Under the pieces are notes generated by a model. That model was not told the DNA's origin and did not search any database. It saw only the letters and a program-made list of their open reading frames with translations. Below, piece after piece: positions 1 through 13,153 of a stretch of 13,153 nucleotides of DNA. The translations under genes and the position numbers were made by a program. This DNA comes from a candidate division LCP-89 bacterium (GTDB lineage: Bacteria > Electryoneota > B3-LCP): NCBI GenBank assembly GCA_025774735.1, contig JALGZU010000081.1, positions 1-13,153 on the forward strand, in the 5' to 3' direction. Numbering within the stretch: the stretch's first letter is position 1; every line of letters starts with the position of its first letter.

Positions 1-2048
1 TAGTTATCGAACAGACCGTGAATGTACGCCAGTCCCCTCCACAGTGCCGCCGCCCCGTGGACGATGCCGTCGATTACATACTGGTCGAATACAGCGCAGA
101 TTTTCGCCAGCAGGTGGACGCCACCCACGAAGATGGTGTTGTAAACCTCGTCCACCCACCACTTGTGGAACATGCCCTTGTAGAAAATGCCCAGCCGCTT
201 CTGCCACTCCGCCGCCGAGATCTTCCACTGGTAGTAGGTGCGGTAGGCGATGAAGATGCCCAGACTTGCCATGATGATCGAGATGATCATGGCTGTGGTG
301 TGCGCCTGGTGATGGACGTGTTCGATGTGTTCGTCGTGAAGCGCCGCTTCGCCGGCGGCATCGTGCCCCTCCGCCTCTGCTTCTTCGGTCATGGCGTGGC
401 TTTCAACGGGCGTGGCGTCACCATGAGCTGTCGCCTCCGAGTGGACTGGCACTTCAATGCTCAAGTAACCTCGTGATGCCTTTTCGTCGGTATGAACAGG
501 AGCGTCCGTTACATAGACTTTCTCCGGGGTCGGGAACAGTTGCGCGAACCAGCCCTTGGCAGCCGACGTGGGATTGACGGTGGGCATCGTCCAGAAGAAG
601 AAGAGGCTCAGTACGGCCATGATCGTCACGGGGATGGTCATGTTGGCCGGAGCTTCGTGGAGGTGACCTTCGGCTTCTTCACCCATGCGAAACTTCCCGA
701 AAAAGGTCAGATAGACCAGCCGGAACATGTAGAAGGCGGTGAGAATCGCCGCGCCGAAGCCGAAGACCGGCAGGAGCCAGTTGCCCGGATGAAGCTGGGC
801 GTAGGCCAGCGTGCCCCCCAGGATAGCGTCCTTGGAGAGGAACCCGGCTGTGAAGGGTACTCCGGAGAGTGCCAGAGTCGCCAACAAGAACGTCCAGTAT
901 GTCAGCGGCATATATTTCTTCAAACCGCCCATGTTGCGCATGTCCTGCGGATCGGCATCGGAATGGATATGATGCAGGGCATGGTGCATGGCGTGGATAA
1001 CGCTGCCCGAACCGAGGAATAGCGCCGCCTTGAACATGGCATGCGTGCAGAGGTGGAAGAAGCCCGCCGTGTAGGCTCCCGCCCCCAGCGCCATGATCAT
1101 ATACCCTAATTGACTCAGCGTGGAATAAGCCAGCACCCGCTTTATGTCGTTCTGCGCCACCGCGATGGTTGCGGCGAAAAGGGCGGTAAAGCCGCCAATG
1201 TAGGCGATCACCAGCCCCGCGTCCGGGGTCAGGATGACGAACATGCGGGCAGTCAGGTAGACGCCTGCGGCGACCATGGTGGCGGCGTGGATCAGGGCGG
1301 AGACCGGGGTGGGACCTTCCATGGCGTCCGGCAGCCAGACGTGCAGGGGGAATTGCGCCGACTTGCCGATGGCTCCGCAGAAGAGGCACAGCCCGGTGAT
1401 GGTCAGCAGGGTGCCCGACATCTCGCCGCGGCCGACGGCGGCGGCGATTTCGTTCAGGTTCAACGTGCCCAGGTTTGTCAAGACCAGCATGATACCGATC
1501 AGCATGCCCGCGTCACCGACCCGATTGACGATAAAAGCCTTGACGGCGGCGTCCGAAGCGCTCTTCTTCTCGTACCAGTGTCCGATCAGGAGGTAACTGG
1601 AGAGACCCACCAGTTCCCAGAAGCAGAATATGACCAGCAGGTTGTCGGCCAGCACCAATCCCAGCATGCTGAAACTGAAGAAGGAGAGAAAGGCGAAGAA
1701 CCGCGAGTAGCGCACGTCGCCGTGCATGTAACCCACGCTGAAGAGGTGCACCAGCGAGCTTACCACCGTTACAATCACCAGCATCATGATGGCCATGTTA
1801 TCCAGGTTGACGCCGACGGTGAAGGTGTAATCGCCGAAAAAGAGCCAGTTGAACTGCCATGAGAGAGCGAAGTTAGCATCCCAGTTCCCCAGCATCTTAA
1901 AGAAGAGGTCGAACGCCAGGACGAGTCCCAGGAAGATCGCCGCCAGGCTCACCCAGTCGCCCCCGCGAGGCAGCCGTTTTCCCAGGAAGATAACGATGAT
2001 GAAGGCCGTGATCGGGGCCAGCAGGATGATTAAGGCTTCGGTTATCAT
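1..2048 (-). CDS. nuoL: NADH-quinone oxidoreductase subunit L (proton-pumping antiporter-like subunit), 3' end cut by window
   Basis: This is the membrane antiporter-like subunit at the distal end of complex I, which helps couple quinone reduction to ion translocation. The frame opens at ATG 2048-2046 (MITEALIILL) and stays open for 682 codons to the window edge, where the last two bases do not complete a codon. Family landmarks are present: FWELVGLSSYLL with the conserved Glu at about residue 145, GAIGKSAQFPLHVWLPDAMEGPTPVSALIHAATMV with the key Lys at about 229, and LSQLGYM near 312-317. The N-terminal Proton_antipo_N and central Proton_antipo_M regions are intact, and many hydrophobic segments cover residues 1-500. 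A hydrophilic linker at about 505-585 is rich in His, Glu and Ala and precedes a further membrane segment near 586-602. The gene lies 91 nt after nuoK, and nuoM/nuoN would be expected beyond the left edge. The family assignment is secure; the C-terminus is not visible. Confidence 0.97.
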   Translation of the reverse strand, partial: MITEALIILLAPITAFIIVIFLGKRLPRGGDWVSLAAIFLGLVLAFDLFFKMLGNWDANFALSWQFNWLFFGDYTFTVGVNLDNMAIMMLVIVTVVSSLVHLFSVGYMHGDVRYSRFFAFLSFFSFSMLGLVLADNLLVIFCFWELVGLSSYLLIGHWYEKKSASDAAVKAFIVNRVGDAGMLIGIMLVLTNLGTLNLNEIAAAVGRGEMSGTLLTITGLCLFCGAIGKSAQFPLHVWLPDAMEGPTPVSALIHAATMVAAGVYLTARMFVILTPDAGLVIAYIGGFTALFAATIAVAQNDIKRVLAYSTLSQLGYMIMALGAGAYTAGFFHLCTHAMFKAALFLGSGSVIHAMHHALHHIHSDADPQDMRNMGGLKKYMPLTYWTFLLATLALSGVPFTAGFLSKDAILGGTLAYAQLHPGNWLLPVFGFGAAILTAFYMFRLVYLTFFGKFRMGEEAEGHLHEAPANMTIPVTIMAVLSLFFFWTMPTVNPTSAAKGWFAQLFPTPEKVYVTDAPVHTDEKASRGYLSIEVPVHSEATAHGDATPVESHAMTEEAEAEGHDAAGEAALHDEHIEHVHHQAHTTAMIISIIMASLGIFIAYRTYYQWKISAAEWQKRLGIFYKGMFHKWWVDEVYNTIFVGGVHLLAKICAVFDQYVIDGIVHGAAALWRGLAYIHGLFDN

Positions 2049-2139: not shown

Positions 2140-2445
2140 TTACCCTCGCAGTTGATCCGCCCGGTCTACTTCCGAGGTGGCGAGGGTGCGGTAGATGTTC
2201 AGGAAGATTGCCAGCGCCACGGCAGCTTCCGCGGCTGCCAGGATTATGACGAAGATGGCCGCGCCCTGACCCAGCAGATTACCGGCGGTGTAATGGCTGA
2301 AAACGACGAAGTTCAACGCCGCCGAATTCAGGATCAGTTCGACTCCCATCAGAATCGAGATGGCACTCTTGCGCGTCATCACGCAGAGCAGACCCAGGCA
2401 GAATAGGATCACTCCCACAGCGAGGAAGATATGGAAATCACTCAT
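2140..2445 (-). CDS. nuoK: NADH-quinone oxidoreductase subunit K
   Basis: This is a small three-helix membrane subunit of complex I, forming part of the proton path next to NuoJ and NuoA. The 101-residue length is normal for the family. Hydrophobic segments sit at about residues 4-22, 29-50 and 61-84. The two intramembrane glutamates expected in NuoK are visible: Glu36 in ILMGVELILNSAALNFV and Glu73 in FVIILAAAEAAVALAIF. The start at ATG 2445-2443 is supported by a strong GGAGGAGG ribosome site inside the end of nuoJ, which nuoK overlaps by 8 nt, so the two are probably translationally coupled. Confidence 0.97.
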   Translation of the reverse strand: MSDFHIFLAVGVILFCLGLLCVMTRKSAISILMGVELILNSAALNFVVFSHYTAGNLLGQGAAIFVIILAAAEAAVALAIFLNIYRTLATSEVDRADQLRG

Positions 2446-2950
2446 GGTCGTCCTCCTCCCGGGGCCTGGAGATGCGCATCGCCCCGATCAAAGCGGCCAG
2501 CAGCAGCACGCTGGCAACTTCGAAGGGAACCAGATAGGTAGTCAGCAGGAGCTTGCCGATACTCTTGGTGGTCGGTTCTGCCGTGGGAATCAACAGGTTC
2601 CAGTCCGCCGAGAACATCACGTAGATCAAGACCGCAGCGATGGCTCCGACTGGCAAAAGCGCCATGTAGCGCTGGTGCGTCTGTTCCGGGATGGTTTTGC
2701 TGTATATTTTCGCCGTCAGGAAGACGCCGAAGATGATCAGGGTCAGAATGCCGCCAACATATATCAGCATCTGGCTGGCGGCCAGGAAGTCCGCAGCCAG
2801 GAACAGGTAGAGTCCAGCAACGCCGATGAATGTGAAGAGCAGGGCGAAGGCGGCATAGATGATCCGCTTGTTGAAAACCACCACGATGGCCGATCCGACG
2901 GTTAAAACGACCAGCAGCCAGAAGATGGCCCTTGTCAAAATCTCGATCAT
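2438..2950 (-). CDS. nuoJ: NADH-quinone oxidoreductase subunit J
   Basis: This is a membrane subunit of complex I (ND6-type). The 170-residue protein has about five hydrophobic segments: near residues 4-26, 30-50, 54-77, 90-112 and 138-160. The third carries the conserved family signature AADFLAASQMLIYVGGILTLI, where a pi-bulge in the helix takes part in conformational coupling in homologues. The length is close to the family norm, without the long C-terminal extension seen in some bacteria. Its ATG overlaps the nuoI stop as ATGA (2947-2950), and its own end overlaps nuoK. This places it inside a tightly packed nuoI-J-K block. Confidence 0.96.
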   Translation of the reverse strand: MIEILTRAIFWLLVVLTVGSAIVVVFNKRIIYAAFALLFTFIGVAGLYLFLAADFLAASQMLIYVGGILTLIIFGVFLTAKIYSKTIPEQTHQRYMALLPVGAIAAVLIYVMFSADWNLLIPTAEPTTKSIGKLLLTTYLVPFEVASVLLLAALIGAMRISRPREEDDHE

Positions 2951-3674
2951 TCCCCCTCCTTTTCGTCCTGGTTCCCCGGCGTTTCAGGGGGTTCGCCAGC
3001 TTCGGGTTCCTGGGATTTCTCGTCCGAATGCTGTTCATCTGAATCGGTAGCGGTCGCTTCAGGTGCAGGTTTCTCTGGAGCTTCCACGGATTTCTCGTCA
3101 GCTTCGGCAGCCGCTTTGGCCGCTTTCGCCGCCGCCGCTTCGGCCGCAGCTTTCTCCTTGGCGGCCTTCATTTCGGCGGCTCGTTGCTGCAACCGCTGGC
3201 GCTCTTCCGCTGAGTAAGTCGCCCAACGCCTCATCATCCCTTCCTGGGTCAGCGATATCTCTTCGTGCATATTTTCCCAGTGAATGGATTCGGTGGGGCA
3301 GGCTTCTGTGCAGAGGCCGCAATGCACGCACTTCAATGCACGCACTTCGCCATCTCCACGTCGAAGAGGAGGACGTGCAGTTTCCTCGGCTTGCCGTCAG
3401 GCATCGGGGGCAGGTTATCTTCTTCCAGGGCTTTGGCAGTTTCGACGTGAATGATCTCCACCGGGCAGGCGCGCACGCATTGCAGGCATCCATTGCAGGA
3501 GTCGATGTCGACCGCCAGGAGCGTGCGGGCACGCGGCGGATAAGTCAGCTTCTCTTTGGGATACTGGACGGTGATGGTGGGCATGAAGATGTGCCGAAAG
3601 GTCACCTGCATACCCAGCAGGGTCGTCACCACACCGAGGTAAATATCCCTGAAGTAGCGGTAGATCGGATTCAT
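2947..3674 (-). pseudogene. nuoI: NADH-quinone oxidoreductase subunit I (2x[4Fe-4S] ferredoxin-type), frameshifted by a 14-bp tandem duplication
   Basis: NuoI carries clusters N6a and N6b on the electron path to quinone. Reading starts at ATG 3674-3672 (MNPIYRYFRDIYLG). The first motif, Cys60-x2-Cys63-x2-Cys66-x3-Cys70-Pro, is intact. The frame then runs into the second motif (DVEMAKCVH) and stops at TGA 3335-3333, giving 113 residues. The remainder is open in another frame from a GTG at 3345 to 2947 (132 codons) and carries CVHCGLCTEACP. The break lies within an exact duplication of 14 bp (3321-3348). With one copy removed, the gene encodes 237 residues with both motifs (second at Cys111, 114, 117, 121). 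The restored protein has a long tail: Ala/Lys/Glu-rich helix at about 150-187, then acidic Pro-rich sequence to 237, ending ATGA into nuoJ. This could be a real mutation, an assembly or read error, or two coupled half-proteins. Identity as nuoI is certain; functional status is open. Confidence 0.9.
3321..3348. repeat. Exact 14-bp tandem duplication inside nuoI
   Basis: AATGCACGCACTTC occurs at 3321-3334 and again, without any difference, at 3335-3348. Because 14 is not a multiple of three, it shifts the reading frame of nuoI exactly at the codons Lys-Cys-Val-His of the second 4Fe-4S motif. Deleting one copy gives an uninterrupted MAKCVHCGLCTEAC reading. It is either a slippage-type duplication or an assembly artefact. 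Confidence 0.95.
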
Positions 3675-3798: not shown

Positions 3799-4815
3799 TT
3801 ACCCCCCCAGCACTATCCACAAACCCACCAACAGCAGGTTGGCGAAGGAGAAGGGTAGGAATATCTTCCAGCAGACGTGCATTAGCTGATCGACTCGCAG
3901 CCGCGGCAGCGTCCAGCGCAGCCACATCTGTACGATCACCAGAGCCAGCGACTTGCCGATGAACCAGATCGGCCCCGGTATAAATGCAAGGAACGGAAAC
4001 GGGGCGTGCCACCCGCCCAGGAATACCGTCGCTGCGATGGCCGATACCACGAACATATTCCCGTATTCGGCCAGGAAGAAGACGGCGAAGCGCATCCCCG
4101 AATACTCCACGTGGAAGCCGGATACCAGTTCAGACTCGGCTTCAGGAATGTCGAAGGGCGTGCGGTTGACCTCCGCCAACGACGCCCAGAAGTAGATGAC
4201 AAAAGCGATGAGACCGAACGGAAACGTCTGGAAGACGTACCAGTTCCAGAACCAGCCCGTCTGATTGGCGACGATGGTCTGCATGGACATCGTCCCTGCG
4301 ATCATCACGGGGATGAGTAGCGAGAGCGCCACAGGTACTTCGTAGGAGACCATCTGTGCTGCCGACCGCATGGCGCCGTAGAGCGCCCATTTGTTGTTCG
4401 ACGCCCAACCCGCCATCAGAATCCCGATCACTACCAGGGACGTCACCGCGATGACGTAATAGACTCCGATGTTCAAATCGGTGCCGATCAGGTTCGAGGC
4501 AAAGGGCAGGACCGCGAATCCGGCCAGGCTGCCGATGAACACCAGGTAAGGCGCCAGTTTGAAAAGCTTCCGGTCTGCCGCGGCCGGGATAATATCCTCC
4601 TTTAAAATCAGCTTCAGGGCATCGGCGATGGTCTGCGACCAGCCGTGCCAGCCGCCGGTCATCATGGGACCAAGCCGGTCCTGGAGGTGAGCGGACACCT
4701 TCCGTTCCAGCCAGATCGCTAGCAAGGCAAAGACAAACAGGAAAAGCACCACGCCGATTAGGTAGACGACTGAAATCAGCAGATCGGTATACGGTTCTAA
4801 GAAGCTAAAATTCAT
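3799..4815 (-). CDS. nuoH: NADH-quinone oxidoreductase subunit H
   Basis: This is the ND1-type membrane subunit of complex I. It joins the membrane arm to the hydrophilic arm and helps form the quinone-entry chamber. The 338-residue protein has about eight hydrophobic segments and the expected signatures. WLERK lies at about residues 35-39. LQDRLGP at 44-50 is followed by [20 protein letters not shown] at 59-78. The long acidic loop [20 protein letters not shown] spans 215-234, and [17 protein letters not shown] follows. The start at ATG 4815-4813 overlaps the nuoD stop as ATGA, implying coupled translation. In many bacteria nuoE, F and G lie between nuoD and nuoH; here they do not. It ends in TAA, then a 124-nt gap to nuoI. 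Confidence 0.98.
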
Positions 4816-6002
4816 CGGTCAACCTCACCCAGGACGATATCGACACTGGCGATGACGGCGACGAGATCGGCGATCAACACCCCGGTGGAAAAAGCCGGAA
4901 TGGCTGATACGGAGCAGTACGCTCCGGAGCGGGCTTTGACTCGGTAGGGCGTCTTGGTGCCGTCTGAAACTATGTAGAAGCCAAGTTCGCCGCGCGGCGC
5001 TTCCGTGCTCATGTAGGCGTCGCCCACGGGCATTTTATTGAAACTCTTGGGAATTTTCTCTTTCACGTCACCTTCTGGCAGGCGATCCAGCGCCTGGCGG
5101 ATGATCTTCAGCGATTCAGTGATTTCCCGCACGCGCACGATGTACCGGTCCCAGCAATCGCCCACCTGGCCTTTTTCGCCGCGACCAATTGCTGGTTCGA
5201 AATCGTATTTCTCGTATCCGCTATAGGGCATGTCTCGCCTTAAATCCCAGTCAACGCCGCTGGCTCGCAGATTCGGTCCCGTAACCCCGTATGAGATGGC
5301 AACATCTCCCGGCAGTACTCCAACGTTCGCCGTCCGTTCGATAAAAATCTTATTGTATGATAGCAATTGATTCAGTTCAGGGATCTTCGGGTCCATGAAA
5401 TCGCAGAATTCACGCACCTTGTCCGTCCAACCGTCGGGCACGTCCTGCGCCACTCCGCCGATGCGAATGTAGTTGTACAATAGGCGGCTGCCGCTCAACT
5501 CCTCCAGCAGATCGATGATGTGCTCCCGCTCCTGGAAGAGGTACAACAATGGCGTCCAGGCGCCGACATCGAGACCGAAGGTCGCCAGCAAAACGCAGTG
5601 GCTGGCGATCCGGTTCAATTCGCAAACGATAACCCGCAGCGTCTCCACCCGGTCGTTAACCTCGATCCCCATCAACTTCTCGACCGCCAGGCAATACCCT
5701 AAACTCATGTTCATACTGCCGAGGTAATCCATGCGGTCGGTGTAAGGGATCACCTGGTTCCAGGCGACGTTCTCGGCAACCTTCTCGAAACAGCGGTGCA
5801 GGTAGCCGATGTAAGGTGTGATCTTGGTGACCACTTCACCGTCGGTTTCCAGTTCGAGACGTAGCACTCCGTGAGTCGCAGGGTGCTGAGGCCCCATCTG
5901 CAGGGTCATCCGCTCCCCGAAAGGATCGACGCTCCCCGCGATCCTCTCCCATTTTTCGGGGACCGGCCCCAGGGCTATATTTAGCTCTTTAGTTTCCTTC
6001 AT
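4812..6002 (-). CDS. nuoD: NADH-quinone oxidoreductase subunit D (49-kDa-type)
   Basis: This hydrophilic-arm subunit, related to the large subunit of NiFe hydrogenases, forms the quinone-reduction pocket with NuoB. The 396-residue length is normal for a stand-alone NuoD, with no NuoC fusion. [14 protein letters not shown] holds the pocket histidines (His40 and His44). [12 protein letters not shown] holds the conserved tyrosine region at about 87-98. Near the C-terminus are [14 protein letters not shown], then the hallmark ending [19 protein letters not shown]. The NiFe-ligating cysteines of hydrogenases are not conserved in the family, as expected. The ATG at 6002-6000 overlaps the end of nuoC by 14 nt, and the stop overlaps nuoH. 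Confidence 0.98.
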
Positions 6003-6486
6003 CGGTGGAACCTGGTACTGCGTTGGTTAGAGGAATCTTGTGCCAGAATTTGGGGGGCTCGTAATCCTTGCGCAGCGGATGGCCTTCCCAATCCTCGGGC
6101 AGTAAGATGCGCCGGTGATCCTGATGACTTTGAAAACGCATTCCCACGAGGTCATACGCCTCCCGTTCGTGCCATTCGGCCGTCCGCCAGATGGAAGAGA
6201 CGGTCGGAATGACAGCATCATCCTTGGGGCAGCGCACCTTCAGAACGATCTGATGCTTGTGTTGCTGAGATCTCAGATGATAAACCACTTCTAAATGTTC
6301 CGGCCAGTCCAGCCCGGAAAGGCACATCAGGAGATCAAAGTTTAGCTCGGGATCCTCTTTCAAGAGTCTGGCGACGTCCGTGATCGCTTCGCGGGGCACC
6401 TCGATGGAAGGGTCCGGAGGCGTGTCGTTCAGGATTACCTGGAATCCTGCGGCGCTGAGTTTGCCGCTAATCTCTTCGGGGGTCAT
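5989..6486 (-). CDS. nuoC: NADH-quinone oxidoreductase subunit C (30-kDa-type)
   Basis: This is a peripheral-arm subunit of complex I that packs against NuoD. The protein has 165 residues and starts at ATG 6486-6484 (MTPEEISGKL). The family signature lies at about residues 105-142: WHEREAYDLVGMRFQSH followed by RRILLPEDWEGHPLRKDY. The N-terminal half (about 30-100) is the usual alpha/beta region with LDWPEHLEVVYHL. It carries no cofactor. It is separated from nuoB by 120 nt, which contains no other gene, and overlaps nuoD by 14 nt. It is shorter than the mitochondrial 30-kDa homologue but typical for short bacterial NuoC. Confidence 0.97.
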   Translation of the reverse strand: MTPEEISGKLSAAGFQVILNDTPPDPSIEVPREAITDVARLLKEDPELNFDLLMCLSGLDWPEHLEVVYHLRSQQHKHQIVLKVRCPKDDAVIPTVSSIWRTAEWHEREAYDLVGMRFQSHQDHRRILLPEDWEGHPLRKDYEPPKFWHKIPLTNAVPGSTDEGN

Positions 6487-6606: not shown

Positions 6607-7095
6607 TTATCCGGTCTTTTTTGCCAGCGTCTCTTGTCTGATCAGTTCTTTCAATTCCAGGTAGCCGTCCAGCAGCGCTTCGGGCCGCGGGGGACAGCCG
6701 GGAATATAGACGTCGACAGGGAGAATCTGGTCAACTCCCTTAACCACGTGATACCCGTGCTGCCAGTAGGGGCCGCCGGTGTTGGCGCAGGATCCCATGG
6801 AGATCACCCAGCGCGGTTCGGGCATCTGATCGTAGAGCCGCCGGACGCGCTCGGCCATCTTGGCGGTGAGCGTCCCCGAGACGAGCAGGCAGTCAGCCTG
6901 GCGGGGCGATGGACGCGGAAAAATCCCCAGGCGATCCAGATCGAATCGGGATGCATTGGTGCACATCATCTCGATGGCACAACAGGCCAATCCGAAGGTG
7001 AGTGGCCAGATCGAACTCAATCTCGCCCAATTGAACAGTTTATCGACTGAGGTGATGATCACATTAGGGCCGTAGCGGCCTTCCAGTATTCCCAT
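6607..7095 (-). CDS. nuoB: NADH-quinone oxidoreductase subunit B (cluster N2 subunit)
   Basis: This is the PSST-type subunit that binds cluster N2, the 4Fe-4S centre that hands electrons to quinone. The protein has 162 residues. The four expected ligands are present: tandem Cys38-Cys39 in [11 protein letters not shown], Cys103 in [14 protein letters not shown], and Cys134 in [25 protein letters not shown] at about 73-81 is also a family signature. The start at ATG 7095-7093 (MGILEGRYG) gives the normal length. It is 91 nt downstream of nuoA and 120 nt upstream of nuoC, looser than the rest of the operon, and neither gap contains a recognisable gene. Confidence 0.98.
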
Positions 7096-7186: not shown

Positions 7187-7600
7187 TCAATCCTGCGAAC
7201 CGGGTTCTGAATCTTGCTGAGTGGATAGGGTCGCGACCTTGGGTTTCGGCTTGATCCATTCCAGGTCGCGCTTGGCCCATACATAGGCCAGACCGACGGA
7301 GAGAATAACGACGAAGACGGCCATCTCGATCCAGGCGAACATACCCAGATCCCTCAAGTTCACACCCCAGGGAAACAGAAACAGGACCTCTACATCGAAC
7401 ACCAGGAATATCAGAGCGATGACGTAAAAGCGGGTGTTGAATCGGATCCAGGGGGAACCGATCGGTTCTTCACCGCATTCATAGGTGGTGAGTTTCTCCG
7501 GGTAGGGCTTTCGCGGGGATAACAACCGCTGCAGAAACAGTGCGATGAAAACCACACCGGCCGCCGCCGCGAAAAAGATGAAAACTGGTCCGAAATCCAT
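7187..7600 (-). CDS. nuoA: NADH-quinone oxidoreductase subunit A
   Basis: This is the ND3-type membrane subunit and the first gene of the operon. From ATG 7600-7598 (MDFGPVFIFF) it encodes 137 residues with three membrane helices at about 4-24, 56-79 and 86-106. The functional loop motif YECG lies at 40-43, and FDVE, with its conserved membrane acid, at 68-71. The C-terminal tail after residue 110 is charged. I prefer this start to the in-frame TTG at 7648. The ATG has a GGAG ribosome site 5 nt upstream, and the TTG lies inside the -35 box of the operon promoter, so it would not be transcribed. Confidence 0.97.
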   Translation of the reverse strand: MDFGPVFIFFAAAAGVVFIALFLQRLLSPRKPYPEKLTTYECGEEPIGSPWIRFNTRFYVIALIFLVFDVEVLFLFPWGVNLRDLGMFAWIEMAVFVVILSVGLAYVWAKRDLEWIKPKPKVATLSTQQDSEPGSQD

Positions 7601-7624
7601 GGATTCTCCGTGCGAAATTTCACT

Positions 7625-7653
7625 AATATACAAAATGAGGAGAATCAAGTCAA
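7625..7653 (-). promoter_or_regulatory. Candidate sigma70-type promoter of the nuo operon
   Basis: On the minus strand, TTGACT (7653-7648) is followed after exactly 17 nt by TATATT (7630-7625). Transcription would begin near 7618, giving an untranslated leader of about 18 nt before the nuoA ATG at 7600, with GGAG just ahead of it. Each box differs from consensus at a single position. This is a sequence match only. Confidence 0.75.
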
Positions 7654-8777: not shown

Positions 8778-10190
8778 TTAAGCCTCGCACAAATCGTGGG
8801 TCTCGGCGGTGAGCTTGAACTTCTTCATTTTAGCCAGCAGCGTGGTGCGGTTGATGCCCAGCCTCCGGGCGGCCAAGCTGCGGTTGCCGCGGCATTCGGT
8901 GAGCATATCCTCCAGGAGACTCCTCTCATATTCGTCCACCCTCTCCTGCAGAGCCTCACTACCGCGTTGAAGCGAAGCCTCGACTTCCCCCATTCGAGAC
9001 AAACGCTCGGGATCGAGGAATCCCAGCGTCTGCTGATCGATCCATTCCCCTTTGCAGAGCACCACGGCGCGTTCGATGGCGTTCTCGAGTTCGCGGACGT
9101 TGCCCGGCCAGGCGTGATTTTCCAGCATCTGCAGGGCTCCGGGAGTAAAACCTTCGAGGCGCTTGCCCACTTCCAGACTGAAACGATGGACGAAATGCCG
9201 GGCCAGTTTTAAGATATCCCCGCGCCGCTCGCGCAGGGGCGGAAGACCGATCGGGAAAACGTTCAGCCGGTAGTAGAGATCTTCGCGATAGGTCGCCTCA
9301 TCCACCATCTTCTTCAAATCCCGGTTGGTCGCTGCGATGATCCGCACGTCCACGGAGAGATCCCGGGTCCCCCCCACCCTTCTGAAAGTCCCGTCCTGCA
9401 GGAACTGCAGCAGCTTCACCTGCGTCGAAAGAGACATCTCACCGATCTCGTCCAAAAACAGCGTTCCCCCGTCGGCCACCTCGAAAAGCCCCTGCTTCAT
9501 GTTGATGGCGCCGGTGAAGGCTCCCTTCTCGTGGCCGAATAGCTCGCTCTCCAGGAGCGATTCAGACAGCGTTACGCAGTTGATCTTGACCAGCGGGCGG
9601 CGGTTGCGGGGGCTGTTGTAGTGGATGGCTCGGGCGATCAATTCTTTACCCGTGCCGCTTTCGCCGATGATCAGCGCCGAGGTGTTGGTCCCGGCAACGT
9701 CACGCACCAGGTCGTACACCCCCAGCATGCGCGGGTCGTCGCCGACGATGTTCTCGAAACGGTAGGGTTTGGCTAACTCTTCTGCAAGAAGTCTGCTCTC
9801 CCGACGCAGCCTCCCCACCTCCAGGGCGTTTTGCACCGTGCGCAGGAGATTCTCCACGTTGAACGGCTTTTCGACGTAATCCAGGGCGCCCTGCTTGATC
9901 GCCCTGACGGCGTCCTGAGTGGATTTCGATCCGGTGATCACCAGGACGGGCAGGTCAGGTTGATCCCCCTGCATCAGTTCCAGCAGCTTGAAGCCGTCCA
10001 GGTCGGGCATCTGCAGGTCGGTCAGCAGGAGATCGAAGCCGCCGGCCTTCAAGGTCTCATAGGCGGACGTCCCCCAGGACTCCGTCGTCACGCGGTAACC
10101 GTGACCCTCGAAGATGTCTCTGAGCAGCTCCAGGACGTCGGAATCGTCGTCGGCGATCAGAATGTGTGGTTTTTCCTTCGGTGCGGCCAT
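8778..10190 (-). CDS. Sigma54-dependent response regulator, NtrC/AtoC type
   Basis: This is a two-component regulator that, when phosphorylated, hydrolyses ATP to open sigma54-RNA polymerase promoters. The 470 residues show the three standard domains. The receiver spans about 8-124, with acid pocket Asp14-Asp16, phosphoacceptor Asp58 (LLLTDLQMPDLDG), Thr86 and Lys108. The AAA+ domain spans about 146-380, with Walker A GESGTGKE at 176-183, the sigma54-contact loop GAFTGA at 223-228, Walker B LFLDEIGE near 244-251, and NHAWPGNVRELENAI at about 358-372. The Fis-type helix-turn-helix spans about 425-460 (RGNRSLAARRLGINRTTLLAKMK). All key residues are present, so it should be active. The start at ATG 10190 has GAGG immediately before it, an unusually tight spacing. 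No histidine kinase and no sigma54 (-24/-12) promoter were found here, so its signal and targets are unknown. Confidence 0.96.
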   Translation of the reverse strand: MAAPKEKPHILIADDDSDVLELLRDIFEGHGYRVTTESWGTSAYETLKAGGFDLLLTDLQMPDLDGFKLLELMQGDQPDLPVLVITGSKSTQDAVRAIKQGALDYVEKPFNVENLLRTVQNALEVGRLRRESRLLAEELAKPYRFENIVGDDPRMLGVYDLVRDVAGTNTSALIIGESGTGKELIARAIHYNSPRNRRPLVKINCVTLSESLLESELFGHEKGAFTGAINMKQGLFEVADGGTLFLDEIGEMSLSTQVKLLQFLQDGTFRRVGGTRDLSVDVRIIAATNRDLKKMVDEATYREDLYYRLNVFPIGLPPLRERRGDILKLARHFVHRFSLEVGKRLEGFTPGALQMLENHAWPGNVRELENAIERAVVLCKGEWIDQQTLGFLDPERLSRMGEVEASLQRGSEALQERVDEYERSLLEDMLTECRGNRSLAARRLGINRTTLLAKMKKFKLTAETHDLCEA

Positions 10191-10370: not shown

Positions 10371-10399
10371 AAAATGTGGCATTGTTCCCGGAGGATATT

Positions 10400-12691
10400 A
10401 TGAAATCGTTAGTATCTGTTTTATTTTGTCTTGCGGTTTTCACCTTTTCAACCTCCCACGCCGACGTCATCACCGTATCCGGCAACGTCTCCGGCACCTG
10501 GTCGGCGGATACGGTGCTGGTAACGGGAGAAGCCCTGGTACCGCCGGGAGAGGTTTTGGAAATCATGCCCGGTGTGCAGGTGCTGTTCACGGTCAACTGC
10601 AAGCTGATTGTGCAGGCGAACTCCACCCTGATGGCGGTCGGCACGGAGTTCGAACCGATCCGTTTCGATGCATATAACATCAACAACTGGTGGCACGGCA
10701 TCGAATTTCTGAATGCACAAGATTCCTCTAGATTGGAGCATTGCATACTGAAGCGAGGGCAGGAAAGTGCTTTACGATTCGAATATTGCAGCCCGACAAT
10801 CGCAAATTGTATCATAGATAGTTGCCAAGCCAATGGGGATGGTGGTGCCATGCACTGCTATTATTCAAGTCCCATCATTAGCAGTTGCGTAATCAGTAAT
10901 AATTCCTCAAATGATGACGGTGGAGGAATTTATGCCTATGAGTCTAACATCACCATAACGGATAGCGAGTTTACAAACAACTGGGCATCTGACTGGGGAG
11001 GAGGATTTGTCTGTCTCTATTCTAATCCCATTATTATTGGCAATACTTTCATTGGGAATTCAACTAACAACGATGGTGGGGCGCTTGGAATTGATGTCAG
11101 CCCAAGCGGGATTATTGCCGATAATCTGATCACTTACAATATGGTTGACGATCAGGGAGCGGGAATAATATGTTGGGGATCGAGCCCGGAGATCACAGGG
11201 AATATAATTAGCAGTAATTTTGCCGCGGGCAGCGCGGGTGGAATCTGTTCAAAAGTCGACTCTGCGCCAATTATAAATGGTAACGTTATCGTGGATAATG
11301 CAACGTCTCAGACGGGTGGAGGGATTTCCTGCTTTACGAACGGAAACACGATAGAAAATAATATCATCAGCAATAACACGTCCTTCTATCAGGGAGGCGG
11401 CATTTATTGCTCCGGATCGTTAAATATCATAGACGGCAATTTCATTTCCGGTAACACCGTCAGGGGCGGTTACTATGGAGGTGGGTTGTACATTAACAGT
11501 GGCTCAGACCATGTCGTCGCCAATAATACCGTCGGTTATAATTTCGCCGCCAATGGTGGAGGCGTGTACGTATCCTATGCTTCAAATCTGGATATGAAAG
11601 GTAATTCCGTTGCCCATAACACCGCTTCAGGTCAGTGCGGCGGAGTATACCTATATGGTGGCAGCGGAGCCTTCTATAAGAATACCGTTCGCGATAACAG
11701 TAGCACCGCCGGCGGAGGATTGCAATTTCAAACCGGATCGTTCATAATAACAAACCTAATCGTGCGCGGTAATACGCCCTCCCAAATCACCGGCTCTGCG
11801 CCCGCCATCACTTATTCCGACATCGAAGGCGGCTTCCCCGGCACCGGCAATATCGACGAGGATCCTCTCTTCGCCACTGTCGCCCAGCCCTTCTCTGAAC
11901 TCCTCTGTGGATCCCCGTGCATCGACAGCGGCGATCCCGATCCGATGTACCTTGATCCTGACACCACCCGGTCGGACATGGGGGCCTGCTTTTACGACCA
12001 GAGTGTACCCGTCCGCATGCTGGCAACACCCTACGACGCGCCCAATCTCATCCCCGCCGCTGGCGGTGATTTCGAACTCAAGCTCACCCTGTCGAACCAT
12101 ACCAACTCCCAGCAACCCGTCCTGATATATTGCGACATCACCCTGCCCGATGGAAGCATTTACGGCCCGGTCATCGGCCCCATAAACTACACCGCGGCTC
12201 CCAACAGCAACATCAGCCGGATCCGCACCCAGAGCGTCCCGGCCGTCGCACCGCTGGGCGTCTATCATTACAACGCCTACGCGGTCATGGGCACGGATAC
12301 CTCCATGAGCAGCTTCATCTTCGGCAAACTGGGAGTATCGGATGACGATAATACGTCCGGATGGAGCAACAGCGGCGATTCCTTCGAAGGGCCAATCAGT
12401 TACACGAAACTTATAGCAAATCAGCCCACCGAGTTTTCACTCGAACAGAACCACCCCAATCCTTTCAATCCCGTCACCACTATCGGGTTTACCCTGCCAA
12501 AGGCGGGTATGACGAAACTCACGATATTCGACCTGCAGGGCCGCCGAATCGCATCTCTGATCGACGACTGGTATCCTGCCGGTGATCATGAAGTCGTCTT
12601 CGACGGGTCAAACTTTCCTTCCGGAATCTACCTTTACCGCCTCGAGGCTGGAGATTTCACCGCTTCGGGCAAAATGGTGTTATTGAAGTAA
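10400..12691 (+). CDS. Secreted right-handed beta-helix protein with T9SS C-terminal sorting domain
   Basis: This is a predicted cell-surface or secreted protein of 763 residues, exported through Sec and then the type IX system. The start is ATG 10400, with GGAGG 5 nt upstream; an in-frame GTG at 10376 lies too close to the -10 to be used. Residues 1-21 form a signal peptide ending Ser-His-Ala, cut before Asp22. Residues 22-90 form a capping region. About 90-480 contain roughly a dozen and a half rungs with recurring N-x-I-x-x-N and GGGI/GGGL motifs, typical of parallel beta-helices. DPLF and SPCIDSGDPD follow at about 490-515, then a beta-sandwich-like stretch. Residues 673-763 are a sorting domain with NHPNPFNPVTTIGFTLP, LTIFDLQGRRI and SGIYLYRL, ending KMVLLK. 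Cysteines are frequent for an exported protein. The ligand and function are unknown. The centre (about 10700-11760) is AT-richer than the ends, unlike the paralogue that follows. Confidence 0.93.
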   Translation: MKSLVSVLFCLAVFTFSTSHADVITVSGNVSGTWSADTVLVTGEALVPPGEVLEIMPGVQVLFTVNCKLIVQANSTLMAVGTEFEPIRFDAYNINNWWHGIEFLNAQDSSRLEHCILKRGQESALRFEYCSPTIANCIIDSCQANGDGGAMHCYYSSPIISSCVISNNSSNDDGGGIYAYESNITITDSEFTNNWASDWGGGFVCLYSNPIIIGNTFIGNSTNNDGGALGIDVSPSGIIADNLITYNMVDDQGAGIICWGSSPEITGNIISSNFAAGSAGGICSKVDSAPIINGNVIVDNATSQTGGGISCFTNGNTIENNIISNNTSFYQGGGIYCSGSLNIIDGNFISGNTVRGGYYGGGLYINSGSDHVVANNTVGYNFAANGGGVYVSYASNLDMKGNSVAHNTASGQCGGVYLYGGSGAFYKNTVRDNSSTAGGGLQFQTGSFIITNLIVRGNTPSQITGSAPAITYSDIEGGFPGTGNIDEDPLFATVAQPFSELLCGSPCIDSGDPDPMYLDPDTTRSDMGACFYDQSVPVRMLATPYDAPNLIPAAGGDFELKLTLSNHTNSQQPVLIYCDITLPDGSIYGPVIGPINYTAAPNSNISRIRTQSVPAVAPLGVYHYNAYAVMGTDTSMSSFIFGKLGVSDDDNTSGWSNSGDSFEGPISYTKLIANQPTEFSLEQNHPNPFNPVTTIGFTLPKAGMTKLTIFDLQGRRIASLIDDWYPAGDHEVVFDGSNFPSGIYLYRLEAGDFTASGKMVLLK
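10452..10641 (+). repeat. Near-identical block shared with the downstream paralogue (copy 1)
   Basis: This block aligns without gaps, at an offset of 2307 bp, to 12759-12948. It has three differences in 190 bp, all at third codon positions and silent. It begins at the codons around the signal peptidase site and covers the first 60 or so residues of the mature protein. Similarity then drops sharply, first to scattered matches and then to protein-level similarity only. Confidence 0.9.
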
Positions 12692-12706
12692 ATTGTGGAG
12701 GCGAAC

Positions 12707-13153
12707 ATGCGCGGGAATAGTCTTATTATCTCCGTCTTAATGCTCCTGGCAGTCGGCGCCTCCCACGCCGACGTCATCACCGTCTCCGGCAACGTCTCCG
12801 GCACCTGGTCGGCCGATACGGTGCTGGTAACGGGAGAAGCCCTGGTGCCGCCGGGAGAGGTTTTGGAAATCATGCCCGGTGTGCAGGTGCTGTTCACGGT
12901 CAACTGCAAGCTGATTGTGCAGGCGAACTCCACCCTGATGGCGGTCGGAACAGAACTCGAACCGATCCGCTTCGACGCATACTATGCCAGTAACTGGTGG
13001 CACGGCATCCGCTTCCTCTCCGCCAACGACACATCCCGGCTGGAACACTGCATCATCAAGCGGGGCTGGGCGTCCGGCGCGGATACGGAGGGCGGCGGTC
13101 TTCAGTTCAACAGTTGCGGTCCTACGGTCAAAAACTCCACTGTCGACAGCTGC
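12707..13153 (+). CDS. Second secreted beta-helix protein, paralogue of the preceding gene, 3' end cut by window
   Basis: The first 149 codons are visible, starting at ATG 12707 with GGAGG (12697-12701) 5 nt upstream and only 15 nt after the previous stop, so the two genes are probably co-transcribed. Residues 1-21 are a signal peptide of different sequence from that of the first protein but with the same Ser-His-Ala end. The mature N-terminus is then identical in protein sequence to the first protein for about 60 residues. Divergence follows, with conserved landmarks NWWHGI, SRLEHCI and KRG. GGGLQFNSCGPTV near the edge looks like the first beta-helix rungs. Base composition here stays GC-rich, unlike the corresponding part of the first gene. 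A C-terminal T9SS domain is expected but lies outside the window. Confidence 0.9.
   Translation, partial: MRGNSLIISVLMLLAVGASHADVITVSGNVSGTWSADTVLVTGEALVPPGEVLEIMPGVQVLFTVNCKLIVQANSTLMAVGTELEPIRFDAYYASNWWHGIRFLSANDTSRLEHCIIKRGWASGADTEGGGLQFNSCGPTVKNSTVDSC
12759..12948 (+). repeat. Near-identical block shared with the upstream paralogue (copy 2)
   Basis: This is the partner of 10452-10641. The three differences are third-base changes in Val (GTA/GTC), Ala (GCG/GCC) and Val (GTA/GTG) codons. The signal peptide codons just before it and the rungs just after it are clearly different, so the near-identity is confined to the cap region. Confidence 0.9.

What the first reader, a model, noticed from the sequence alone, without database searches (positions are those of the whole stretch)
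3321..3348. 14-bp tandem duplication splits nuoI inside its second 4Fe-4S motif
An exact 14-bp repeat shifts the frame at the first cysteine of the second cluster motif, in an otherwise intact complex I operon. Removing one copy restores a perfect MAKCVHCGLCTEACP reading. NuoI is normally indispensable for complex I, so this is either a fresh loss-of-function allele, a phase-variable slippage site, or an assembly error. All eight cysteines survive across the two fragments, and the downstream frame has a GTG start (3345) that overlaps the upstream stop (3333-3335). A translationally coupled split protein is therefore formally possible but unlikely.
Basis: partly seen in the sequence, partly recalled or inferred. 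Interest (0 to 1): 0.72.

Follow-up and report, generated by a model that had tools for sequence, protein, structure and literature searches.

The report
One-off 14-base duplication breaks nuoI
A short stretch of DNA is copied twice in a row inside a gene for a respiratory enzyme subunit, which cuts the gene in two; related bacteria have the gene whole, so this is most likely an assembly error or a fresh chance mutation rather than a working device.

Summary
The feature is really in this record: an exact 14-bp tandem duplication (3320-3348) splits nuoI (minus strand) into a 113-aa N-terminal ORF (3674-3333) and an overlapping 132-aa C-terminal ORF (GTG 3345-2947). It is beyond chance. It does not look like a conserved or functional device. 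Of 80 relatives' loci, 70 gave a nuoI match and 67 were open across both cysteine motifs; the three exceptions were two scaffold gaps (NN) and one contig end. Neither nuoI piece shows a significant excess of amino-acid change on the window branch, so the lesion is very recent or an artefact. One other locus (L031) carries an exact 14-bp tandem duplication that shifts nuoD. I put assembly/consensus error at about 0.52 and fresh loss of function at about 0.38; reads, which would decide, are not available. Phase variation and a coupled split protein have no positive support.

The parts
3320..3348 (.). exact 14-bp tandem duplication (two full copies plus one base)
3333..3674 (-). nuoI N-terminal fragment, 113 aa, ATG to TGA; first cluster motif complete plus the first cysteine of the second
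2947..3345 (-). nuoI C-terminal fragment, 132 aa if read from GTG; complete second cluster motif and a long Ala/Lys/Glu-rich tail
3354..3357 (-). GGAG 8 nt upstream of GTG 3345; a possible chance Shine-Dalgarno match inside coding sequence
   Evidence: sequence
2947..2950 (-). ATGA overlap of the nuoI stop and nuoJ start (coupling would be lost if nuoI translation ends at 3333; inferred)
   Evidence: sequence; the same overlap is seen in L001
3799..4815 (-). nuoH, intact, upstream neighbour
2438..2950 (-). nuoJ, intact, downstream neighbour
2140..2445 (-). nuoK, intact
3..2048 (-). nuoL, open, runs off the window
4812..6002 (-). nuoD, intact
5989..6486 (-). nuoC, intact
6607..7095 (-). nuoB, intact
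7187..7648 (-). nuoA, intact (longest ORF, TTG start)

Best explanation
The duplication is a one-off, non-functional frameshift in an otherwise normal nuoI, and most likely an assembly or consensus error in a contig of a lineage known mostly from draft metagenome assemblies: the same 14 bases were written twice at a join or local mis-resolution inside the conserved second 4Fe-4S motif. Shown: the duplication, the split, intact nuoI in relatives, and no sign of decay. Inferred: that the living population has one copy, and that the window is itself a metagenome assembly (its source is not told).
For: Relatives are intact: 67 of 80 loci are open across both motifs; of the other 13, two are NN scaffold gaps, one is a contig end and 10 gave no nuoI match. 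The repeat was not found in 39 of 39 genomes of G001's phylum at up to 2 mismatches (a weak test, because those genomes are diverged). There is no significant excess of amino-acid change in either nuoI piece on the window branch: eight two-sided binomial P values from 0.22 to 1.0 (counts, P values). The other nuo genes in the window are open. Breaks fall in these genes in other draft assemblies too: NN gaps inside nuoI of L033 and L063, and an exact 14-bp tandem duplication that shifts the nuoD frame in L031, with, by my reading, about 40 residues missing further on. The 29-base array for a 14-base unit leaves 1 base of flanking homology, so the microhomology pair typical of one class of real duplication is lacking.
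Against: No reads, coverage or assembly method were available. A graph assembler working with k longer than 29 would normally need reads that contain the junction (general knowledge). Spontaneous exact duplications of this kind are a known real mutation class. The site has no N runs. L031 may itself be a true pseudogene. No same-species sequence was found for comparison. The C-piece counts are small and lean towards the window in three of four comparisons (4:1, 5:4, 5:1).
Confidence: 0.52

Rival explanations
1. A genuine, very recent spontaneous 14-bp tandem duplication that inactivates this nuoI in the sampled strain. Translation ends at 3333; the ferredoxin-like subunit is lost, the complex cannot pass electrons, and nuoJ/K translation, coupled to nuoI by an ATGA overlap, is probably reduced. 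It may be tolerated because a second nuo set covers the function.
For: Exact copies with no sign of decay. In G001 and G015 a second NuoI was typed above the TIGR01971 cut-off (118.4 and 117.2 bits against 113.05). NuoF over cut-off is in 6 of 6 nearest genomes examined, two NuoJ matches on different contigs in 6 of 6, and a second, distant NuoI-like match in 6 of 6.
Against: An unbroken nuoI of the window's type and the second NuoI-like gene are both kept in those 6 genomes, which suggests that this complex is under selection. A consensus contig reports the majority sequence of a population (general knowledge). Whether the window's own genome has the second set is unknown, because no genome is held.
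Confidence: 0.38
2. A reversible switch: the two-copy state toggles nuoI off, as with reversible intragenic duplications in pneumococcal capsule genes or microhomology-mediated tandem duplications in fission yeast.
For: An exact two-copy tandem can revert by slippage (general knowledge). Reversible sequence duplication in the pneumococcal capsule operon is described in passages of PMC4243769, and reversible duplications in the S. pombe gene ssp1 in a figure legend passage of PMC13207564.
Against: No repeat of this length in relatives: of 71 nuoI core stretches (first 160 residues), 32 held exact tandems, all of period 6 or 7. There are only two copies and 1 base of flanking homology. An energy-metabolism core subunit is not a typical phase-variable gene (general knowledge).
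Confidence: 0.06
3. A translationally coupled split NuoI: the C-terminal half restarts at GTG 3345, which overlaps the upstream stop, and both halves assemble into complex I.
For: GTG 3345 lies upstream of stop 3335-3333, with GGAG 8 nt before it. Motif 1 is whole in the N piece and motif 2 is whole in the C piece. The C frame stays open to the nuoJ overlap.
Against: None of the 70 loci with a nuoI match shows a natural split (67 intact, 2 N gaps, 1 contig end). The GGAG is part of coding sequence (GTG-GAG-ATG) that L003 also has in an unsplit gene. The cut falls within a compact two-cluster fold (general knowledge).
Confidence: 0.04

Closest known systems
Spontaneous short tandem duplications within genes (pneumococcal capsule types 3, 8 and 37, Waite and colleagues; primary papers not read, seen only as cited in PMC4243769)
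   Same: intragenic sequence duplication that inactivates a gene
   Different: there reversibility and a phenotype are reported; here only one sequence is known, and the gene is respiratory
Microhomology-mediated tandem duplications (S. pombe ssp1; passages of the review PMC13207564)
   Same: short duplication within a coding sequence
   Different: they are bounded by a microhomology pair; here a single base is shared
Complex I without NuoEFG (Fpo-like or 11-subunit Nuo; name recalled)
   Same: gene order A-B-C-D-H-I-J-K-L with no E, F or G in between
   Different: nuoI is frameshifted here; M and N, and anything else downstream of L, lie beyond the window

Membership tests
NuoI (complex I 23-kDa subunit) | two CxxCxxCxxxCP motifs in one reading frame | tested here: not met
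   the motifs lie on two overlapping ORFs in different frames
NuoI (complex I 23-kDa subunit) | sequence similarity and operon position between nuoH and nuoJ | tested here: met
   the pieces score below the whole-protein cut-off because each is partial
Phase-variable repeat locus | repeat tract present or varying among relatives | tested here: not met
   71 nuoI core stretches hold exact tandems of period 6-7 only; pattern absent from 39 of 39 genomes at up to 2 mismatches
Phase-variable repeat locus | mixed alleles in a population | not testable with these tools
   no reads available
Microhomology-mediated tandem duplication | microhomology pair flanking the duplicated unit | tested here: not met
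   29-base array for a 14-base unit, i.e. 1 shared base
Assembly error | reads support one copy | not testable with these tools
   no reads available
Complex I without NuoEFG | no nuoE/F/G in the operon | tested here: inconclusive
   none between A and L in the window, but the window ends inside nuoL. In G001 and G015 no NuoF match lies on the corresponding stretch. Extra untyped ORFs occur between K and L in L131 and L130, and between B and C in L130
Split (translationally coupled) protein | the split is conserved in relatives | tested here: not met

The most novel reading that the evidence does not exclude
The duplication is a real and reversible allele that switches off the complex I encoded here in part of the population, with a second NADH-oxidising nuo set as backup: a bet-hedging switch between two respiratory entry complexes.
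Probability: 0.03. Interest if true: 0.6.

Novelty: already known. Interest (0 to 1): 0.12.

Why it matters
If it is an error, it is a caution for reading gene loss from single contigs of uncultured bacteria. If real, it is a snapshot of a fresh loss in one of what may be two complex I systems, and could test whether this complex is dispensable when a second nuo set is present.

Tried and rejected
Same-species copy: the C piece (only the 7994 candidates sharing most words were scored), the L001 NuoI (497 candidates, 39 hits) and the window NuoD (8000 candidates scored, best 120 of 339 listed) were searched against 5.8 billion proteins. The best match to the N piece among the fetched proteins is 81% (L001's own) and the best NuoD match is 93%. 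No conspecific nuoI was found. The length limits of the search mean that a copy broken like the window's would not have been seen, and the C piece found no self-match.

Apparent stops in the phylum survey: the two strong matches with a stop (G014 and G008) were read out, and both stops lie at the natural end of the gene after the tail (G008, G014). Two weak matches with a stop (one each in G011 and G017) were not read out.

Chimera of two organisms at the site: both nuoI pieces are closest to G001, as are most of the neighbouring genes tested (exceptions in the comparison: nuoA, where G002, G005 and G015 are higher by percent identity over shorter stretches, and nuoL, where G003 is higher over a partial match). 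DNA similarity to G015 runs through nuoA into the NUDIX gene, and a similar-looking response regulator follows there (by eye, L130). Rejected as unsupported.

RNA element at the site: no tRNA and no Rfam match at gathering threshold in the window.

Literature: eight searches; two searches returned nothing. No title or abstract start listed there described this lesion in nuoI. Beyond listings I saw only passages of PMC7696260, PMC3578206, PMC13207564 and PMC4243769. The primary duplication papers were not read; one of them (PMC8639346) is not held.

Full report
Observation. The window holds an exact 14-bp tandem duplication. Tandem Repeats Finder places it at 3320-3348 with period 14, 2.1 copies and 100% match. 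It is the only exact tandem with two full copies and a period of 10-60 in the window, and 0 of 200 first-order Markov randomisations of the window gave any such tandem of period 10-40. On the minus strand it splits nuoI into ATG 3674-3333 (113 aa) and GTG 3345-2947 (132 aa). Both pieces match NuoI models over consecutive parts of the profile. One detail to add is that the first cysteine of the second motif is now encoded twice.

Setting. The window carries nuoA-B-C-D-H-I-J-K-L on the minus strand, with the other genes open (nuoL up to the window edge) and no nuoE, F or G among them. What lies beyond nuoL is not seen. A scan of genome contigs with NuoH kept the best 80 of 585 relatives. The nearest are L001 (candidate division LCP-89 bacterium B3_LCP, 90% in the best segment), L003 (84%), L002 (80%), L004 (79%) and L052 (77%). 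DNA identity to the genome of L001 is 70-78% over the matching pieces of this nuo operon, so no close strain is at hand. The window NuoD searched against 5.8 billion proteins gave 93% as the best match. The best NuoI match to the N piece is 81%.

Relatives. The first 160 residues of the L001 NuoI were compared with the 80 loci. They gave a match in 70; 10 had none (L004, L009, L020, L022, L027, L044, L045, L053, L058, L067). These 10 were not followed up, except that the genome of L004 holds an unbroken nuoI on another contig. Of the 70, 67 are open across both motifs. The three others are L033 and L063, where a two-base N run sits inside the gene, and L059, which ends at the contig end. A survey of the 39 genomes held for the phylum of G001 found matches in 38, many of them only distant ones. 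Two strong matches with an internal stop (G014, G008) proved to be natural gene ends. One weak match each in G011 and G017 also carries a stop; these were not read out. The repeat junction was found in 0 of the 39 genomes with up to 2 mismatches, which is a weak test in diverged genomes; the open frames above are the stronger one. No relative shows a repeat of this length: of 71 nuoI core stretches (70 of the 80 loci plus L130), 32 hold exact tandems, all of period 6 or 7. One of them (L040) has a 7-base repeat near the second motif in an intact gene.

Age. Amino-acid changes private to the window and private to G001 were counted against four outgroups, G015, G003, G002 and G005. For the N piece they are 9:8, 4:8, 7:3 and 4:7. 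For the first 51 aligned residues of the C piece they are 4:1, 5:4, 2:3 and 5:1. None differs significantly from equality (two-sided P 0.22 to 1.0). The C-piece numbers are small and lean towards the window in three of four. Intact neighbours show asymmetries as large in number of changes (nuoL 25:12 against G003, nuoJ 14:7 against G015). The gene shows no sign of decay, so the lesion is very recent or not real.

Artefact or mutation. Exact tandems of period 10-60 are rare: 14 rows, some of them one array counted at more than one period, in 822,758 bases of the 80 loci. One is an exact 14-bp duplication in L031 that shifts the frame of nuoD; by my reading about 40 residues are missing further on. 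Together with the two N gaps inside nuoI this shows that nuo genes are broken in other draft assemblies by what looks like joining trouble, though L031 could be a true pseudogene. The duplication has one base of shared flank, not a microhomology pair. Against the artefact reading, reversible sequence duplications that inactivate genes are real (pneumococcal capsule genes, passages in PMC4243769), there are no N runs at the site, and a graph assembler normally needs reads that carry the junction (general knowledge). Without reads I put the error at 0.52 and a genuine fresh lesion at 0.38.

Consequence if real. The N piece would lack the second cluster motif. nuoJ starts in an ATGA overlap with the end of nuoI, so ending translation at 3333 should also lower nuoJ and nuoK unless the C frame is re-entered (inference). 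GTG 3345 with GGAG 8 nt upstream makes re-entry conceivable, but that GGAG is ordinary coding sequence shared with intact L003. G001 has a separate cluster with nuoC, D, E, F, G, H and a second NuoI above the TIGR01971 cut-off, with other ORFs in between. In G015 the second NuoI, NuoH and NuoG were typed in the same kind of cluster and NuoF lies there too. The six nearest genomes examined (G001-G005 and G015) all have NuoF over its cut-off, two NuoJ matches on different contigs, and a second, distant NuoI-like match. All six also keep an unbroken nuoI of the window's type, which argues that it is under selection. Whether the window's organism has the second set is unknown.

Verdict. It is an ordinary one-off frameshift, somewhat more likely an assembly error than a mutation, with no support for a conserved switch or a natural split gene.

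Noticed in passing
window 10376-12691 and 12695-13153, plus strand: Two adjacent ORFs encode similar starts of a secreted-looking protein: 74.7% amino-acid identity over 146 residues and 93.7% DNA identity over 252 bases. The first ends in a Por_Secre_tail sorting domain. A recent tandem gene duplication is likely.
   Followed up: partly
L122 (G001:C7:386000-405900), L123 (G015:C31:22000-41002): Relatives carry a second nuo set: a C-D-E-F-G-H-I cluster in G001 and an F/G/H/I-containing cluster in G015, interrupted by other ORFs. A second NuoJ lies on another contig.
   Followed up: partly
L031 5782-5809: An exact 14-bp tandem duplication shifts the nuoD frame, with about 40 residues apparently missing further on, in a record titled Bacteroidetes bacterium isolate CTSoil_038.
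   Followed up: partly
window 2947-3200, minus strand: The NuoI C-terminus has a long Ala/Lys/Glu-rich tail. Similar low-complexity tails are seen by eye in L001, L003, L052, L002 and L079.
   Followed up: no
window 8778-10190, minus strand: Sigma-54-dependent response regulator (Response_reg, Sigma54_activat, HTH_8) near nuoA; G015 has a similar-looking ORF in the same relative place (L130 16124-17530, by eye).
   Followed up: no
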